This document shows positions 5,893 to 43,610 of a stretch of 43,705 nt of DNA, in pieces (the stretch's first letter is position 1; each line of letters starts with the position of its first letter). The stretch is taken from the NCBI GenBank assembly GCA_019359715.1, contig JAHHGS010000103.1, forward strand, positions 1 to 43,705, given 5' to 3'. The translations under genes and the position numbers were made by a program. This DNA comes from Aphanocapsa sp. GSE-SYN-MK-11-07L. Lineage in GTDB: Bacteria; Cyanobacteriota; Cyanobacteriia; Thermosynechococcales; Thermosynechococcaceae. Below the pieces are notes generated by a model that made no database searches, was not told where the DNA came from, and saw nothing but the letters and a program-made list of their open reading frames with translations.

Positions 5893-6144
5893 TCATCTCC
5901 TCAACTCTAAAGCATTATTGGTTTGGGCAGGCTGTAGCGTCTTCGGCTGAGGCATTACTTTGCCTTCTTGTTGATACCAAATAAATAAAGATTCAATCAG
6001 CTCATGACCATTAGTAGCCGCCTGTTCATAGGTTGCGCCATCGGTGCAGGGCTGGTGTAACTCAGGAAAATCAGGCAGAGAGACAACGTAACAAGCGTCG
6101 TCCTCTGACCACTGGATTAACATCTGATACTTACTCATGCTCAT
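5893..6144 (-). CDS. HicB-like (UPF0150) antitoxin-type protein
   Basis: An 83-residue protein with the HicB-type N-terminal fold: KYQMLIQWSEDDACYVVSLPDFPE, where a beta strand, then W(S/D)ED..YV..LPD and a conserved Cys/Gly turn give the partially degraded RNase-H-like domain. A helix follows (YEQAATNGHELIESLFIWYQQEG). ATG 6144 is selected because AGGA lies eight bases upstream; ATG 6138 is a second option. No HicA toxin (short double-stranded-RNA-binding-like protein) lies beside it. Many cyanobacterial HicB-like proteins are solitary, so antitoxin function is not assured. Confidence 0.75.
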   Translation of the reverse strand: MSMSKYQMLIQWSEDDACYVVSLPDFPELHQPCTDGATYEQAATNGHELIESLFIWYQQEGKVMPQPKTLQPAQTNNALELRR

Positions 6145-6238
6145 CTTGAAGATCCTGAATGTTCTGAAGCGCAACTTTGACTTGCTGTTCGAGATAGCGG
6201 GGGGCATCATCGCCGTCTTTACGGGCAATGATAACCAA
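6131..6238 (-). CDS. Small ORF overlapping the HicB-like gene, 35 residues
   Basis: A TTG at 6238 opens a 35-codon frame ending at TAA 6133-6131, overlapping the start of the HicB-like gene by 14 bases. It encodes LVIIARKDGDDAPRYLEQQ followed by a helical, Gln/Asp-rich tail. In-frame stops block extension upstream. The overlap suggests translational coupling, and the sequence looks protein-like, but I do not recognise a family. It may be the C-terminal remnant of a longer upstream partner gene. Confidence 0.35.
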   Translation of the reverse strand: MVIIARKDGDDAPRYLEQQVKVALQNIQDLQDEHE

Positions 6239-7277: not shown

Positions 7278-7290
7278 CTCAATCTTGTTG

Positions 7291-7328
7291 AAGGCAGAGG
7301 GCAGAAGGAATAACTAGCCCTCTGCCTT
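7291..7328. terminator. 12-bp inverted repeat between GAF gene and thiL
   Basis: AAGGCAGAGGGC (7291-7302) and GCCCTCTGCCTT (7317-7328) are perfect 12-bp inverted arms around a 14-base loop. The hairpin sits just after the stop of the GAF gene and before the thiL start (both minus strand). It probably attenuates or ends the GAF transcript; no long U-run follows on the minus strand. It is built from CTGCCTT/AAGGCAG heptamers that recur at 22850-22925 and 23358-23370. Confidence 0.5.
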
Positions 7329-7342
7329 CTTCCTTCACTCTA

Positions 7343-7894
7343 CTAGCTTTGTAGAATCGAAGGAGCCTTAGCCAACGTTTCTGCCCCCTGCCGCAGATTG
7401 TCGATGTCTGACAGTGACCAGGGCCGAGCCGATCGACAGTGGTGGGCAATCAACAGCCCCCATAGCCGCTGACCGTTGATCACTGGCACAACCAAATTGG
7501 CTCGCACCATCAGTTGGCGCAAAAAATTGCGATGGCACTCTTGAATGGGCTCTAGTTCAATGTCAGGAATGGCCCGCACTCGCCCCGCTTCGTACAGGGC
7601 CGCATAGTCGCCGTTAAAACATTGATCCGGCCCTTTAGAGCCAACAATCGACATCGCATGGGTTCCCAAAGCTTCAAAGGTGACTTGCCCTTCCCATTGG
7701 GCATAAAAGTAGTAGAGGACGACGCGATCGCTTTGCAGCTTGGCTCTCAGGTTATGAACCGTCGCTTGCACAAGTTCATCCCTGGCCATCGCTTGAGTTA
7801 AGCGATCGGCAACTTTACGCATTCCTTGGTCGGTAGAGCTATTTTGCCAACCGGAATCCTGTCTAAACTGCTGATCTCCTTCATAGGTTGTCAT
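7343..7894 (-). CDS. Single-domain DXCF-type cyanobacteriochrome GAF protein
   Basis: A 183-residue protein made almost entirely of one GAF domain (about residues 22-178). The cyanobacteriochrome landmarks are present: DQCF at 90-93 (the DXCF motif, second cysteine Cys92) and Cys120-His121 (QECHRNFL), the canonical bilin-attachment cysteine with its following histidine. The GRVRAIPDI segment, the VRANLVVPVINGQRLWGLLIAHHC segment and the closing W are typical. The 28-residue spacing between the two cysteines equals that of the DXCF protein TePixJ (Cys494/Cys522). This predicts a bilin photosensor with blue/green-type chemistry, by inference. There is no kinase, GGDEF, methyl-accepting or DNA-binding output domain. 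Confidence 0.75.
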   Translation of the reverse strand: MTTYEGDQQFRQDSGWQNSSTDQGMRKVADRLTQAMARDELVQATVHNLRAKLQSDRVVLYYFYAQWEGQVTFEALGTHAMSIVGSKGPDQCFNGDYAALYEAGRVRAIPDIELEPIQECHRNFLRQLMVRANLVVPVINGQRLWGLLIAHHCRSARPWSLSDIDNLRQGAETLAKAPSILQS

Positions 7895-13581: not shown

Positions 13582-14118
13582 CTAGGGAGTTTCGTAATCG
13601 GGTGCGTAGGTTTGCAGCAGCGCACTCACCTGGGTCAGCACTTCCTTGCCGGAAGTCTTACTGATTGCTTCCCGCTCTGGGAAGAACTCTGGCTGGTCAA
13701 GGTTGCGATCAATGGCTTCTTGCACCTGTTTGCTAATTAGATCATTCAGCTCTTCTTGGGCTCGCATCCGCTGATAGTTAGCGCCTTCCTCAGTCGTGGC
13801 ATACAGGGGCGGCAAGCGGTTGAGGGCGTAAGCAGCAATATCGCCTAAATCGAGCGTGCGATCGCTTTCCGACTCGATCGCAGCCACGCGGGTAATCGCT
13901 TCCGTCAAGACTAATTCTTCCATCACGTTGATAAACTGTTTGCGTGGTACAGCCACCACTTGCCCAGTCAACAATGCCCCCATCAAGCGATCTAGCGCCA
14001 TGTATTCTTCCACCGACAGTTCGGCGGCACTGTCGCAAATGCGCCCTACCTCTGCTTCCATCGTTGGAGTCAGATAGCCGTTCGCCAGCGCTAGTTCGAC
14101 AATTTCTTCAATGCCCAT
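13582..14118 (-). CDS. ComFB-family protein
   Basis: A 178-residue protein with a ComFB domain in its middle: RKQFINVMEELVLTEAITRV and LDLGDIAAYALNRLPPLYATTEEGANYQ are the family's signature helices (about residues 68-140). The N-terminal part (IEEIVELALANGYLTPTMEAEV ... LSVEEYMALDRLMGALLTG) is the extension usual in cyanobacterial members. Cyanobacterial ComFB proteins have been reported as cyclic-dinucleotide receptors tied to motility and competence, from general knowledge. ATG 14118 is set by homology; the frame is open to 14157. It lies directly upstream of cimA. Confidence 0.85.
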   Translation of the reverse strand: MGIEEIVELALANGYLTPTMEAEVGRICDSAAELSVEEYMALDRLMGALLTGQVVAVPRKQFINVMEELVLTEAITRVAAIESESDRTLDLGDIAAYALNRLPPLYATTEEGANYQRMRAQEELNDLISKQVQEAIDRNLDQPEFFPEREAISKTSGKEVLTQVSALLQTYAPDYETP

Positions 14119-14296
14119 AATTTTAATTCGCTTGCTTACCTGCGTGAAATAACACACCTAACATAGTTTGCCCCAAATCGCCCGCATAAAGTGAACAATT
14201 TAATTATAAAGATGACAAAATACGGGCACGAGTTTGCTGACCAACAATGCCTTGACTAGACAATAAGATTTTTAGGATGATCAACAATCATCAGCC

Positions 14297-30923: not shown

Positions 30924-33900
30924 CTAACGCCTAACGAGATCTACCACGAGTGATGCTAGTTGAAGGGGGTCAACGGGTTTAGCAACATGAATTTGAAACC
31001 CAGCCTCAAGGGCCAGTTGGATCTCGGCGCTGCTAGTATAGGCAGTCAAGGCAACGGCTGGAATTTGCCCTCCAGCTTCTGGCTCTAATTGTCGGACTTG
31101 CTGGATCAACCAGTAACCATCTGCTTCTGGCATCCCAAGATCGCAAATCAGCGCGTCGTATTGATTTGGGTTGGCGTTCAGAGCGGATAGGGCTTGTCTG
31201 GCAGAGGTTACTGTCAGCACTTCCGCCCCATAGCTGTTCAGCACAAACTCAAATAGCTCACAGATATCAACTTCGTCATCCACGACTAAGATCCGCAAGC
31301 CTGACAGCACGGGATCGTCTGAACCTTCAGAAGTCACTGCTAAGGGAGTTGGCTCTAAATCGCTAGATGGGGTCAGCTCCTGAGCTAGATCTGGCAGGGG
31401 CAACCTGACGGTGAGGGTTGCTCCTTGTCCTTCCCCCAGACTCTCGGCTTGAACTGTGCCGCCGTGCAGTTCAACCAAATACCGGACGATCGCCAACCCT
31501 AGCCCTAAGCCGGCTGTCGGTTTACTGGAGCTGGAATCGCCTTGGCGAAAGCGATCAAAAATGTAGGGCAGCAAATCGGCTGAAATGCCTTGTCCGGTAT
31601 CGGTAACTTGGATCTGAGCCTGTGCTGGCAAGGACTCTAGCCTGACTTCAATCTGTCTGCCGGCTGGGGTAAATTTAATTGCATTCGACAACAAATTCCA
31701 GAAAACTTGCTGGAGCCGATCAGGATCACCCACCACAACTTCAGACTTGGGCTGGAACACAATTTCGATCTGTTTGGCTGCGGCTGATAGTTGCACCGTT
31801 TCAATTGCGGCTTGAATCACCAACTGGAGATCAACCAAACAGGTGTTGAGGCGAAGCTTGCCGTTTGTAAGGCTGGAAACATCTAGAATATCTTCAATCA
31901 GGCGGAGCTGCGCTCTTGCACTCCGCTCAATTACTTCTACGGCATGGGTTGTTGTCGCTTGCTCAAGGGTGCGATGACGAAGCATACTTGCCCAACCGAG
32001 CATTGTGTTGAGCGGATTTCGGAGTTCATGGGACAGGTTTGAGAGGAATTCATCTTTGATCCGGTTGGCCGTTTCGGCTGACTGACGAGCGGTTTGCTCT
32101 TGGGTGAGGAGCAGCGATCGCTCCGTTTCAAACTGCTTGCGCGCAGTAATGTCTTCAATCGCCAGCAGAATCATGGTCGCATTATCTTCTCCTCGCAGCT
32201 TGCAGGCATTTAACAGCAGGGTTTTTTGGCCAATCCGCTCAAAAACAGACTCGATTTCAAAATTTTGCGGTTGGGCATCGTTTGCTAAAATTTCGCCCAG
32301 AAACGATCGCAGTTGGGGGAGATTCCACTGGCCGTCGCCAAGCTCAAACCAAGACGATTGCAGGGTTTCTGACTCAGAAACCTGAAACATGGCATAGAAA
32401 GATTGATTGACCGTGATCACCCGCAGATCATCATTCAGCACCACGAGCGGAATTTGCACCGTCTCGACAATCGTTTCGGCGTAGTTTCGAGCAGACTCGA
32501 CGATCGCGGCGTGGCGTTTGAGCGCGTCAATGTCGAGGAACACCATTGTTACCCCGTCAATTTGATTTTCGGTGGTGCGATAAGGCCGAATCCGCAGAGC
32601 ATACCAATAGCCAGCTTGGGTTTGAACTTCTTGCTCTCTTGTATTCAGCGTCTCCAGCACTTCTAATACCATCGCTTCTAAGTTAGAAACGTCAAAATTA
32701 GCCCGCAGGTGGTTAAACGGTCGTCCAACATCGGTCGGAATGAAGTCAAACAGTCGCTGGGCTGCCGGGGTAAAGCGACGAATTCTTAAGTCATTGGTCA
32801 GCATCAAAATCGGCACACTGATGCTGTCAACAAAATTGTTGAGGTCACTGTTGTCTCGGTTTTGTTGCAGATGGCGACTCCGCAGCTCATCATTGGTGGT
32901 GGAAAGTTCCTCGTTGGTGGCTTGAATCTCTTCTTTGGCGGTTTGAAGTTCTTCATTGGTGCTTTGCAGCTCCTCGTTGCTGGATAAAATTTCTTCGTTG
33001 GCCACGCGCAGGTTTTGATTCAGGTAATTTTGTTCCTGAATCACCGCTTGCAGATGGGCTTGTGCCGAAAGTTCTCGCTGGGTTGCGGCTGCCAGCGCCT
33101 GCCGGAGTTGGATAATTTCAGACTCTAAGTCTGCCGGATCTCGGCGTTCAGCTAAGGGGGATGCAGTAACTGGGCGTACAACGGTTTCAAAAATGACCAG
33201 AAAATAGAGCGTGTTCGAGAAAGCAGGCTTAAAAGGAATCACTTCCAGATTGAGACAGGTTGATTGCTGATCGGAGGCAAGCTCAATTTGCTCTTGTCGA
33301 ACCGAAATGTTTTGAGTTTGGGCTTGATAAATCGCTGTCCGCAGGGCGATCGCCCATCCTTCCCGCACCATCAGCAGCACATTTAGATCAGTGGTTCCAG
33401 ACGGCAGCTTTAAATAGCGATCGGTATCTCCGCGCAGGTGGAGAATATGCATCTGGTCATCGATCACGACCGACACGGGCGCATAGCGATTTGCAATCAA
33501 CTGGTCAACTTCTTGCCCTAAATCAAAAGTATGGGTGATTGTTTTGGTCGGGCGCTGCTGACTGTCCAGGTTGACAACCGGGTAAGGGTTAGTCGTGAAC
33601 GAAAAGAGCGGACGAGCGAAAGTCAGATTTCGAGCGTAAATTTTGGCGGATTCATTGACGGCGGTAAACAAGCTTGAAGCAGCTTTGACGCTTTCTGAAG
33701 TCCCCAAAACCAGAAAGCCATTTAGGTTGAGACTGTAGTGAAACAGAGCCATGATCCGCTCCTGCAAAGAATCTGACAGGTAGATCAGCACGTTGCGACA
33801 GCTAATCAGGTCAAGATTCGAGAACGGCGGATCGCCGCCTAAGTTATGCCGAGCAAACACACACAGTTCACGAATCGCACTGCTAATTTGATATCCTCCA

Positions 33901-35120
33901 CCTGCTAAAGGAACAAAAAAGCGGTGGCAGCGCTCCGGCGAAACCGCTTCCATCTGGCTTTCTAGGTAGAACCCTGATCTGGCCCGGCTGATCGCGGCTT
34001 CGCTGATGTCGGTGGCAAAAATTTGAATCGGCGGAATACTAGCCCGATCGCTAAAAAACTCCAACAGGCAAATGGCGATCGAGTAAACTTCTTCGCCAGT
34101 CGAACAGCCGGCCACCCAAATCCGAATCGGAGCCTCTGCGGATTTATTTTGGCTAATGGTTGGAAAAACCTGTGCGCTCAGTTGTTCAAAGGTTTCAGGG
34201 TCACGAAAGAAACTGGTGACATGGATCAAAATTTCTTCGTACAGGGCTTGGACTTCATCTGGGTACCCTTGCAGGTACTGAGCGTAGTCTTCGAGGCTTT
34301 CGAGCTTGTACAACAGCATCCGGCGCTGCATCCGGCGATCAAGCGTCGTCGGTTTATAGAGGGTAAAGTCAACCCCCGTGCTGGTTCGCAGCAGCGCGAA
34401 AATCGTCGTCAAAGCATCACCGGGTTCAGGTAGCTGCACGACCTGAAGCGGCACTGAATCGGCAAGAAAGGGACTGCGACTGAGGTGGGTTAGTTCGACA
34501 GCAATTGCCTCCGGCGGCAGGACAAAATCTACGTTGCCGGTGGCAACAGCAGTATTCGGCATACTGTCAAATTTTGCGGTTGCTTCGCACTGAGCAAAGC
34601 TGACTCCTCCAGCCACCTTGATCGCTTTTAAGCCCTGAGCACCATCTCCATCCGAGCCGGATAAAACAACCGCGATCGCTTTGTTGCCGCGATCAATTGC
34701 CAATGACTCAAAAAACGCATCCCCCGGCATGTATTTTCCCAGGATTTTCTGGCGGGGAGCCAAATGGAGCATTCCGTCGGCCAGCGTCATCTGGGTGTTA
34801 GGCGGAATCACGTAAATCTCGTTTGGCTCGACGCTCATTAGGTCTTGCACCTGCCGCACCGGCATTGCGGTTAATCTGCTTAAGATTTCGGTCAGTAAGC
34901 TTTCACGATCAGGGGACAAATGCTGAATCAGCACAAAGGCCATGCCCGTGTCGATCGGCAAGTGACGAATCAGTTCTGTAAAAGCTTCTAAACCCCCGGC
35001 GGAAGCAGCAATGCCGACGACTGGAAACGGCGCATCGGTCTTGGCAAGCTGCTCTGGAGCGATCGCTTCCGAGGCAATCAGATCAGATGAATCTTCTGGA
35101 TTGGCAGGGGAAGAAGTCAT
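30924..35120 (-). CDS. CheB-CheR-PAS-histidine kinase-receiver hybrid
   Basis: A protein of about 1398 residues. In order: a CheB methylesterase domain (about 30-215) with catalytic Ser in IAASAGGLEAF, His in VLIQHLSPD and Asp in SGSDGDGAQG; a CheR methyltransferase domain (about 230-490) with the SAM motif VAGCSTGEEVYSIAI; a PAS-like segment; a heptad-rich coiled coil of repeated NEEL(Q/S)(S/T)(T/A) units (about 700-750); PAS domains; HisKA with phospho-His in NLSHELRNPLN (about 1027); an HATPase with NLLSNAIKFTPAG; and a receiver (about 1277-1395) with phospho-Asp in LICDLGMPEADG. No transmembrane span. ATG 35120 is chosen; TTG 35180 is possible. Ligand is unknown. Confidence 0.9.
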   Translation of the reverse strand: MTSSPANPEDSSDLIASEAIAPEQLAKTDAPFPVVGIAASAGGLEAFTELIRHLPIDTGMAFVLIQHLSPDRESLLTEILSRLTAMPVRQVQDLMSVEPNEIYVIPPNTQMTLADGMLHLAPRQKILGKYMPGDAFFESLAIDRGNKAIAVVLSGSDGDGAQGLKAIKVAGGVSFAQCEATAKFDSMPNTAVATGNVDFVLPPEAIAVELTHLSRSPFLADSVPLQVVQLPEPGDALTTIFALLRTSTGVDFTLYKPTTLDRRMQRRMLLYKLESLEDYAQYLQGYPDEVQALYEEILIHVTSFFRDPETFEQLSAQVFPTISQNKSAEAPIRIWVAGCSTGEEVYSIAICLLEFFSDRASIPPIQIFATDISEAAISRARSGFYLESQMEAVSPERCHRFFVPLAGGGYQISSAIRELCVFARHNLGGDPPFSNLDLISCRNVLIYLSDSLQERIMALFHYSLNLNGFLVLGTSESVKAASSLFTAVNESAKIYARNLTFARPLFSFTTNPYPVVNLDSQQRPTKTITHTFDLGQEVDQLIANRYAPVSVVIDDQMHILHLRGDTDRYLKLPSGTTDLNVLLMVREGWAIALRTAIYQAQTQNISVRQEQIELASDQQSTCLNLEVIPFKPAFSNTLYFLVIFETVVRPVTASPLAERRDPADLESEIIQLRQALAAATQRELSAQAHLQAVIQEQNYLNQNLRVANEEILSSNEELQSTNEELQTAKEEIQATNEELSTTNDELRSRHLQQNRDNSDLNNFVDSISVPILMLTNDLRIRRFTPAAQRLFDFIPTDVGRPFNHLRANFDVSNLEAMVLEVLETLNTREQEVQTQAGYWYALRIRPYRTTENQIDGVTMVFLDIDALKRHAAIVESARNYAETIVETVQIPLVVLNDDLRVITVNQSFYAMFQVSESETLQSSWFELGDGQWNLPQLRSFLGEILANDAQPQNFEIESVFERIGQKTLLLNACKLRGEDNATMILLAIEDITARKQFETERSLLLTQEQTARQSAETANRIKDEFLSNLSHELRNPLNTMLGWASMLRHRTLEQATTTHAVEVIERSARAQLRLIEDILDVSSLTNGKLRLNTCLVDLQLVIQAAIETVQLSAAAKQIEIVFQPKSEVVVGDPDRLQQVFWNLLSNAIKFTPAGRQIEVRLESLPAQAQIQVTDTGQGISADLLPYIFDRFRQGDSSSSKPTAGLGLGLAIVRYLVELHGGTVQAESLGEGQGATLTVRLPLPDLAQELTPSSDLEPTPLAVTSEGSDDPVLSGLRILVVDDEVDICELFEFVLNSYGAEVLTVTSARQALSALNANPNQYDALICDLGMPEADGYWLIQQVRQLEPEAGGQIPAVALTAYTSSAEIQLALEAGFQIHVAKPVDPLQLASLVVDLVRR

Positions 35121-35269
35121 AGGAATAAATACCGCTTCGTAAAGATTAGCTCGATCGTCTTGAGAGCAATACTGCTGCAACGGGTGTTTAAAGAGTCAAA
35201 TTTGCTCTGCTTGCAAATCCTTGATCCTCCTAAATCCACGCCACTTGCTTCAAGTCGGCACAGCCGCCA

Positions 35270-41828: not shown

Positions 41829-43610
41829 CTAGGTTGGGCTTGGCAATCCCCCAATCGGAGCAAGATTCAAGAACTGAGTCTCCTCAAAGGGGGCGAAATT
41901 GCTGCCTACACCAGTTGCAGACAGGTTGACAGTATTAACTCCATCACTGCCGTTAGAGCGGAAAGTGTCTTGAGCAGAGCTAGAGTTTAGAGGATTGCTA
42001 GCTTTACTGCTAGTCAATATGGCGCGATCGCCTGCCGCTAAGGTATCCCTGCTACCGCCGCTGATCAGCGTATCATCGGGGTCGCTGCCCGTCAGGACAT
42101 CGCTGCTGTCAACACCCGTGAGGGTATCATTACTGTCAACACCTGTAAGCGTGTCACTAAGATTAGTGCCGATCAGGGTGTCATTCAGGTCGCCTCCCGT
42201 GAGGGTATCGTTGTGATCGCGGCCCGCGATCGTGTCATTAGGATCGCTACCCGTCAGAGTGTCATTAACATTGACATCACCGCCGACGAGGGTGTCCCTA
42301 GGAGTACCACCGACAAGCGTATCATTGCGATTACCGCCAACGATCGTGTCGCTGGGATAGCCACCAACAAGAGTGTCATTTGGGTATCCGCCGATCAGGG
42401 TGTCACCAGGATTGCCGCCCCTAAGCGTATCTCCAGGATTGCCACCAATTAGAGTGTCATTAGGGTTGCCACCGATGAGGGTGTCACCAGGATCGCCGCC
42501 CGTGAGCGTATCATTATCAAGAATGTCTAAAGTAGCCGTACTTTGGTTGCCAATCTCGGTTCCTTGACTAGGATTGATCAATTTCAGAGTCAGATTTTCG
42601 GTGTTTTCTACCAAGCGATCGTCGCTGATGGGAACAGTGACTGTGGCACGGGTCTGATTGGCAGCAAAAGTGATGGTTTGCGTACTGTTGCTATAATCAG
42701 CACCGCCAGTGGCCGTACCGTCGGCAAACGCAACATTGACCGTAGATGTGCCGCTTGTGTCGCCTGTGCGGAGAAGGGTAATTTCTGAACCAACCACCGT
42801 GCCATTTTCATTGACTTTATAGTTGGGAGCAGAAAAGCTAATTTTGGTAAAGCCTTCTGCCCACCAGGCAAGCCCGTAGGATTGGACGCGATCAGGGGTA
42901 TCTTTTTGCTGTACCCAAAATTCGTATTCTTTTTCTTCAGGAATTTTGAAGAAAATGTGCTCGACGCTGTCCACTGTACTAATTGAGGCATCAATAGGCT
43001 TTAATGCGTCTTTCGCCCCTTTGGGTAATAAGAACAGATCCAAATTGGTCAGATCGAAAGACTTAAAGCTCTCGTTGAGGTCAAATTTACCGTTGCCTTC
43101 ACTTTTATCTTTATCGTTAGTTCCTGCCTTACCGTCAGTGCCGAAATCTTGCAGGTCAACTTTTCGATCCCAAGCTAGGGTCATGGAAATATAGCTGCCT
43201 TTTTTCAGGGCTTGGCCGAAGGTATATTTGTTAGTGAGTCCGTCACCAAACATAAACGAGGAGTCCCATCCAATTAAGGGAACTCTTGTAGCTTCACTTT
43301 GACGCACGAAGTCTGCGGGCCCCCACTCACCTGGCTTAAATTGCGTAAAGGCACGGCTAGCGTTGAGTTGACCCGTTCCCATCTCTTTATCAAGGGGAAT
43401 CTCTTGTTGCCGGAAAGCATCAGAATGCAGCCAGTCTAGCTCCACTTTCGGATCGCTATTTAGAATGGTTTTCTTCATGCCCAGAATGCCTTCTTTCTTG
43501 TCGGCTGAGTTCATCAGCACGGCTTTCATCACCTGATGGCTGCGTGCGTCAGTATCCCACTTATGTCCATAAATAGAGTTGGGTGCGGCTCTTTTGAGGT
43601 AACAAAACAT
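41829..43610 (-). pseudogene. Subtilase-like secreted protein, 5'-truncated, with Calx-beta and RTX-like repeats
   Basis: The 593-codon frame starts inside a domain: RSHQVMKAVLMNSADKK followed by MGTGQLNASRAFTQF matches the region after the catalytic Ser in S8 peptidases with dockerin-like companions. The Ser (GTSxAAP) and the rest of the catalytic triad are absent, and a TAA lies six codons before ATG 43610. The remaining parts are a beta-sandwich (about 85-250, with NLDLFLLPKG), a Calx-beta domain (about 255-365, NVAFADGTATGGADY...), a block of 18 repeats (about 366-535) and a tail. Likely a truncated copy of an exported calcium-binding protease. Confidence 0.75.
42005..42515 (-). repeat. 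Tandem nonapeptide repeats, RTX-like with proline
   Basis: Eighteen copies of a 27-base unit encode GG(N/D/Y)PxDTL(I/V/T) (for example GGNPNDTLI, GGNPGDTLR, GGYPNDTLV), read on the minus strand. The usual RTX nonapeptide is GGXGXDXLX; here the fourth residue is mostly Pro (early copies) and then varies (DV, RD, DL) in the later copies. The array is near-identical at first and degrades towards the C-terminus. Confidence 0.85.

What the first reader, a model, noticed from the sequence alone, without database searches (positions are those of the whole stretch)
7343..7894. Free-standing DXCF cyanobacteriochrome GAF with no output domain
The whole protein is one GAF domain but keeps both chromophore cysteines: Cys92 in DQCF and Cys120-His121, 28 residues apart as in TePixJ (Cys494/Cys522). 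Known DXCF sensors carry kinase, methyl-accepting or GGDEF outputs in the same chain. A stand-alone one could act by protein-protein contact or as a light-responsive bilin carrier. Its neighbours (thiL, a YyaL protein) give no obvious partner.
Basis: partly seen in the sequence, partly recalled or inferred. Interest (0 to 1): 0.6.

Follow-up and report, generated by a model that had tools for sequence, protein, structure and literature searches.

The report
Stand-alone dual-cysteine cyanobacterial light-sensor domain
This gene encodes a small light-sensor protein, a single bilin-binding domain with no attached signalling part, and it belongs to an old and strongly conserved cyanobacterial family; a probable relative (Alr3356 of Nostoc PCC 7120) has already been reported, but how the family passes on its signal is still unknown.

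Summary
On the minus strand at 7343-7894 there is a complete 183-residue ORF that is one GAF domain. It carries D90-x-C92-F93 and C120-H121, 28 residues apart as in TePixJ, and keeps the other pocket positions I checked. It is not a fragment. Single-domain orthologues of 162-196 aa, one copy per genome, occur in 57 of 386 sampled cyanobacterial genomes and in 18 families overall. In 64 aligned orthologues C92, F93, C120 and H121 never vary, and no other cysteine is invariant. Median dN/dS is 0.18. The family forms one clade (support 100/100) inside DXCF cyanobacteriochromes, and its closest sampled relatives sit in GAF-GAF-histidine kinases. Gene neighbourhoods are not conserved, so no partner is indicated. 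The claim that known DXCF sensors always carry an output is probably wrong. Nostocaceae members lie directly 3' of ndhH. In Nostoc 7120 ndhH is alr3355, and alr3356 is a reported cyanobacteriochrome and FurA target. Most likely this is a blue-absorbing photochromic sensor that signals in trans through light-dependent protein contact. Photochemistry and partner are inferred. It is a new member of a known kind.

The parts
7343..7894 (-). Stand-alone DXCF-type cyanobacteriochrome GAF protein, 183 aa
7616..7627 (-). Codons of D90-Q91-C92-F93 (DXCF motif, second cysteine)
   Evidence: translation; Cys and Phe invariant in 64/64 orthologues
7532..7537 (-). Codons of C120-H121 (canonical bilin-attachment cysteine and adjacent histidine)
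   Evidence: translation; invariant in 64/64; aligned with C522-H523 of TePixJ
7364..7783 (-). GAF domain as bounded by Pfam PF01590
7290..7347 (.). GC-rich inverted repeat (dispersed repeat, partial copies elsewhere in the genome) between the GAF gene and thiL; not called a terminator by the scan
   Evidence: sequence

Best explanation
The protein is a single-domain DXCF cyanobacteriochrome. It probably binds phycocyanobilin autocatalytically through Cys120, partly converts it to phycoviolobilin, and in the dark 15Z state also bonds Cys92 to bilin C10, giving a violet/blue-absorbing form. Blue light isomerises the C15=C16 bond and breaks the Cys92 bond, giving a green- or teal-absorbing 15E form. 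With no output domain in the chain, the light-dependent shape change would be read by a separate protein through reversible contact, as the stand-alone BLUF protein PixD does with PixE (general knowledge). SHOWN here: sequence, fold family, cysteines and pocket residues, single-domain state, conservation, clade, lack of a conserved neighbour. INFERRED: bilin binding, photocycle colour, signalling in trans.
For: Best matches among solved structures are bilin-binding GAFs (6oap 1.6e-28, TePixJ 3vv4 5.4e-22). Invariant in 64 orthologues: C92, F93, C120, H121, W67, E74, Y97, Y101, R105, H151, W159. Positions of TePixJ D492, W499, R507 and C522/H523 (H498/W499, D492 and C494 are described in PMC6955287) are occupied by D90, Y97, R105, C120/H121, as in multi-domain DXCF GAFs. 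The host makes bilins: heme oxygenase and four ferredoxin-dependent bilin reductases. Single-domain orthologues in 57/386 genomes. One clade, 100/100, nested among DXCF GAFs. Median dN/dS 0.18. The closest sampled multi-domain relatives place the GAF next to histidine-kinase domains, so an ancestor probably signalled to a kinase. Alr3356, next to ndhH=alr3355 in Nostoc 7120, is called a cyanobacteriochrome, citing a study of seven blue-absorbing bilin-binding GAFs; six sampled family members lie directly 3' of ndhH.
Against: No spectroscopy and no direct evidence for a partner. TePixJ H498, which contacts the B-ring propionate, is D96 here (acidic in 59/64), and Q526 is F124, so the photocycle colour may differ. 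D90 is D in only 53/64 orthologues. The AlphaFold model was too poor to use (pLDDT 49). That Alr3356 belongs to this family rests on synteny and annotation; its sequence was not compared.
Confidence: 0.72

Rival explanations
1. A bilin carrier, buffer or PCB-to-PVB isomerase: the protein binds bilin to store, modify or deliver it, and its photochromism is incidental.
For: No output domain and no conserved partner gene. DXCF GAFs typically isomerise PCB to PVB (PMC11284453).
Against: Cys120, the thioether-forming position, is invariant; a covalent, stable linkage suits a sensor better than a carrier. No recurrent linkage to bilin-synthesis or phycobiliprotein genes was seen in the sampled neighbourhoods. 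The second cysteine is invariant although one DXCF protein is reported not to need it for isomerisation (AM1_6305g1, cited).
Confidence: 0.1
2. A two-cysteine GAF that senses redox state, iron or another ligand and does not use bilin in vivo.
For: Two invariant cysteines. The probable Nostoc 7120 relative alr3356 is controlled by the iron regulator FurA (3.94-fold up on furA depletion, EMSA positive).
Against: The conserved set is the bilin-pocket set (H121, F93, Y97, R105, H151, W145-L148), not just the cysteines. The clade is nested among bilin-type DXCF GAFs.
Confidence: 0.08
3. A decaying remnant of a multi-domain photoreceptor in this strain.
For: The chain lacks an output domain.
Against: 64 intact single-domain orthologues, one copy per genome, in 18 families, under purifying selection.
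Confidence: 0.02
4. A sensor subunit that is always bound to a specific orphan histidine kinase encoded elsewhere, as a split cyanobacteriochrome kinase.
For: The closest sampled multi-domain relatives are GAF-GAF-HisKA-HATPase or longer GAF/PHY kinases.
Against: No recurrent kinase next to the gene. An OmpR-type response regulator lies downstream in only one lineage (L056-L058).
Confidence: 0.08

Closest known systems
Alr3356 of Nostoc/Anabaena sp. PCC 7120 (FurA-regulated cyanobacteriochrome, PMC4788461)
   Same: Described as a cyanobacteriochrome with a bilin-type GAF. It lies next to ndhH (alr3355), and six sampled family members in Nostocaceae-like genomes lie directly 3' of ndhH on the same strand.
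   Different: The window gene lies between yyaL and thiL, not beside ndhH. Family membership of Alr3356 rests on synteny and annotation; no sequence comparison was made.
TePixJ GAF (PDB 3vv4), DXCF blue/green cyanobacteriochrome
   Same: DXCF and CH motifs 28 residues apart, aligned without gaps between them; R105 and H121 kept.
   Different: TePixJ is annotated as a methyl-accepting chemotaxis protein with its output in the chain; H498->D96, W499->Y97, Q526->F124.
DXCF GAFs of GAF-GAF-histidine kinases (L083, L089) and of L085
   Same: Closest sampled relatives by tree (88/79); same motifs.
   Different: Multi-domain kinases; outside the 100/100 single-domain clade.
PixD (stand-alone BLUF photoreceptor; from general knowledge)
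   Same: One photosensory domain without output that signals by light-dependent contact with a partner.
   Different: Flavin-based BLUF fold and not homologous; a functional analogy only.

Membership tests
DXCF cyanobacteriochrome (GAF) | Bilin-type GAF domain | tested here: met
   Pfam GAF 4.3e-18; best solved matches are bilin-binding GAFs
DXCF cyanobacteriochrome (GAF) | Canonical Cys followed by His (or Tyr) in the CH motif | tested here: met
   C120-H121, invariant in 64/64
DXCF cyanobacteriochrome (GAF) | Second Cys in DXCF | tested here: met
   D90-Q91-C92-F93; Cys and Phe invariant in 64/64, Asp in 53/64
DXCF cyanobacteriochrome (GAF) | Other pocket residues kept (positions of TePixJ W499, R507, H523; conserved His 151) | tested here: met
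   Y97, R105, H121, H151 kept; TePixJ H498 is D96 here
DXCF cyanobacteriochrome (GAF) | Phylogenetic placement among DXCF GAFs | tested here: met
   Clade nested among DXCF GAFs; deep branches of the tree are weak
DXCF cyanobacteriochrome (GAF) | Covalent bilin and reversible photoconversion | not testable with these tools
   Needs protein and spectroscopy
DXCF cyanobacteriochrome (GAF) | Host makes the bilin | tested here: met
   Heme oxygenase and four Fe_bilin_red genes
Multi-domain cyanobacteriochrome signalling protein | Output domain in the same chain | tested here: not met
   One GAF only in 183 aa; single-domain in 64 orthologues
Alr3356-type single-domain family | Membership in the 100/100 single-domain clade | tested here: met
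Alr3356-type single-domain family | Sequence similarity with Alr3356 itself | not tested

The most novel reading that the evidence does not exclude
A widespread single-copy family of single-domain bilin photoreceptors, kept across the cyanobacteria, that signals only in trans to a still unknown partner: a bilin-based counterpart of stand-alone BLUF proteins and an undescribed mode of cyanobacteriochrome signalling, possibly linking light colour to iron status.
Probability: 0.35. Interest if true: 0.6.

Novelty: new member of a known kind. Interest (0 to 1): 0.35.

Why it matters
DXCF cyanobacteriochromes are normally discussed as sensory modules of larger signalling proteins. A small, single-copy, strongly conserved family with no output shows that selection keeps the bare photosensor, so a partner probably exists and can be sought in genetically tractable Nostoc. 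Such ~18-20 kDa natural single-domain sensors could also serve as optogenetic or fluorescent scaffolds. In Nostoc 7120 a probable relative is under FurA control, which makes a light-iron link testable.

Tried and rejected
(1) Truncated or frameshifted remnant: rejected by 64 intact single-domain orthologues and dN/dS of about 0.18. (2) Partner by gene neighbourhood: surveyed for 50 loci (mostly 12 kb); neighbours are variable housekeeping genes. (3) NDH-1 link from the Nostocaceae order ndhH-GAF-Methyltransf_28: rejected as evidence, because ndhH and the Methyltransf_28 gene lie together without the GAF in other genomes (L150; also near each other in L141, L142). (4) AlphaFold model from two sequences: pLDDT 49, unusable, so no fold search was run. 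(5) Orthologues on plasmids or viral contigs: only distant multi-domain or non-cyanobacterial GAFs on plasmids, and none in viral contigs. (7) Literature searches for a stand-alone cyanobacteriochrome found no description in the held open-access set; the key paper on seven Nostoc GAFs (doi 10.1111/febs.12003) is not held.

Full report
OBSERVATION. The ORF lies on the minus strand at 7894-7343, 183 aa with an ATG start. Pfam finds one GAF domain (residues 38-177, E 4.3e-18) and nothing else. The motifs are D90-Q91-C92-F93 and C120-H121, 28 residues apart. Against sequences of solved structures the best hits are bilin-binding GAFs: 6oap (1.6e-28), the miRFP670nano proteins engineered from NpR3784, and TePixJ 3vv4 (5.4e-22), with both cysteines aligned without a gap between them. 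The gene order on the minus strand is YyaL/DUF255 - GAF - ThiL-like.

NOT A FRAGMENT. A search of 386 cyanobacterial genomes found orthologues in single-domain frames of about 165-213 codons in 57 genomes, one per genome. A search of relatives added more. Together they cover 18 of the tool's family labels, and one orthologue is in Phormidesmis priestleyi. Scores separate: single-domain orthologues score about 150 bits or more against the window protein, multi-domain GAFs at most 144. The 64 orthologues that could be read are 162-196 aa, with pairwise identity 41-96%, mean 57%. Median dN/dS over 196 pairs is 0.18.

POCKET. In all 64, C92, F93, C120, H121, W67, E74, Y97, Y101, R105, W145, H151 and W159 are invariant, and C92 and C120 are the only invariant cysteines; D90 is Asp in 53. 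With TePixJ numbering = window + 402 over this stretch, D492, W499, R507 and C522/H523 correspond to D90, Y97, R105 and C120/H121. H498, a propionate contact in TePixJ (PMC6955287), is D96 here, and Q526 is F124. The host has a heme oxygenase and four ferredoxin-dependent bilin reductases.

PHYLOGENY. A maximum-likelihood tree of 103 GAF domains puts the 64 single-domain proteins on one side of one branch (support 100/100, stem 0.74), nested among DXCF GAFs of multi-domain proteins. The nearest sampled relatives (88/79) are L083 and L089, both GAF-GAF-histidine kinases, and L085, a longer kinase with PHY and GAF domains. The reference GAFs were chosen from the best matches to the query and from the host's own GAFs, and deep branches are weak. 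The simplest reading is one loss of the output, inherited since; this is inference.

SURROUNDINGS. Neighbourhoods in 50 loci are not conserved across lineages, and Pfam on same-strand neighbours shows unrelated housekeeping genes. Six Nostocaceae-like loci share ndhH - GAF, five of them with the Methyltransf_28 gene directly next. ndhH and Methyltransf_28 also lie together without the GAF, so this is not evidence for an NDH-1 role. One lineage has an OmpR-type regulator downstream (L056-L058). An inverted repeat between the GAF gene and thiL is a dispersed element with partial copies elsewhere; the terminator scan did not call it.

KNOWN RELATIVE. In Nostoc PCC 7120 ndhH is alr3355 (PMC8147232). 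The next gene number, alr3356, is annotated 'similar to phytochrome' and described as a cyanobacteriochrome, citing Ma et al. 2012 on seven blue-absorbing bilin-binding GAF domains of that strain. It rises 3.94-fold when furA is turned off, and FurA binds its promoter in vitro (PMC4788461). By synteny Alr3356 is probably a member of this family. Its sequence was not compared, and the Ma et al. paper is not held, so whether Alr3356 was one of the seven and how it behaved could not be checked.

MECHANISM. By the standard DXCF model (PMC5578081 and PMC11284453), Cys120 would hold the bilin, Cys92 would bond C10 in the dark state, and blue light would break that bond. Output would be by contact with another protein. 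The first part rests on strong homology; the second is inference from the missing output and the missing neighbour.

VERDICT. Real, functional by conservation, and ordinary in kind: a new member of a known kind. The interest lies in the unknown trans partner of a widespread single-domain family, not in this one gene.

Noticed in passing
30924-35180 (-): Single 1418-aa protein joining CheB methylesterase, CheR methyltransferase, PAS domains, histidine kinase and a receiver domain.
   Followed up: partly
41829-43610 (-): 593-aa protein with a Calx-beta domain and many short 'NDTLxGG'-like RTX repeats; the N-terminal part has no Pfam match.
   Followed up: partly
7290-7347: Inverted repeat (AAGGCAGAGGGC...GCCCTCTGCCTTC) with partial copies at four other places in the genome; a dispersed element between the GAF gene and thiL.
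   Followed up: partly
13582-14157 (-): ComFB-family protein (PF10719) directly upstream on the same strand of a citramalate/isopropylmalate-synthase-like gene.
   Followed up: no
5893-6228 (-): Small ORF with a weak match to HicB-like antitoxin, below the family's cut-off, downstream of thiL.
   Followed up: no
G000:C99:11064-12496: Two adjacent ferredoxin-dependent bilin reductases (PebA/PebB-like arrangement) plus two more elsewhere in the host genome.
   Followed up: no
L150; also L141, L142: ndhH next to (L150) or near a Methyltransf_28 gene, the family of the complex I factor NDUFAF7, which in mitochondria methylates the NdhH homologue (family knowledge); a possible functional pair.
   Followed up: partly
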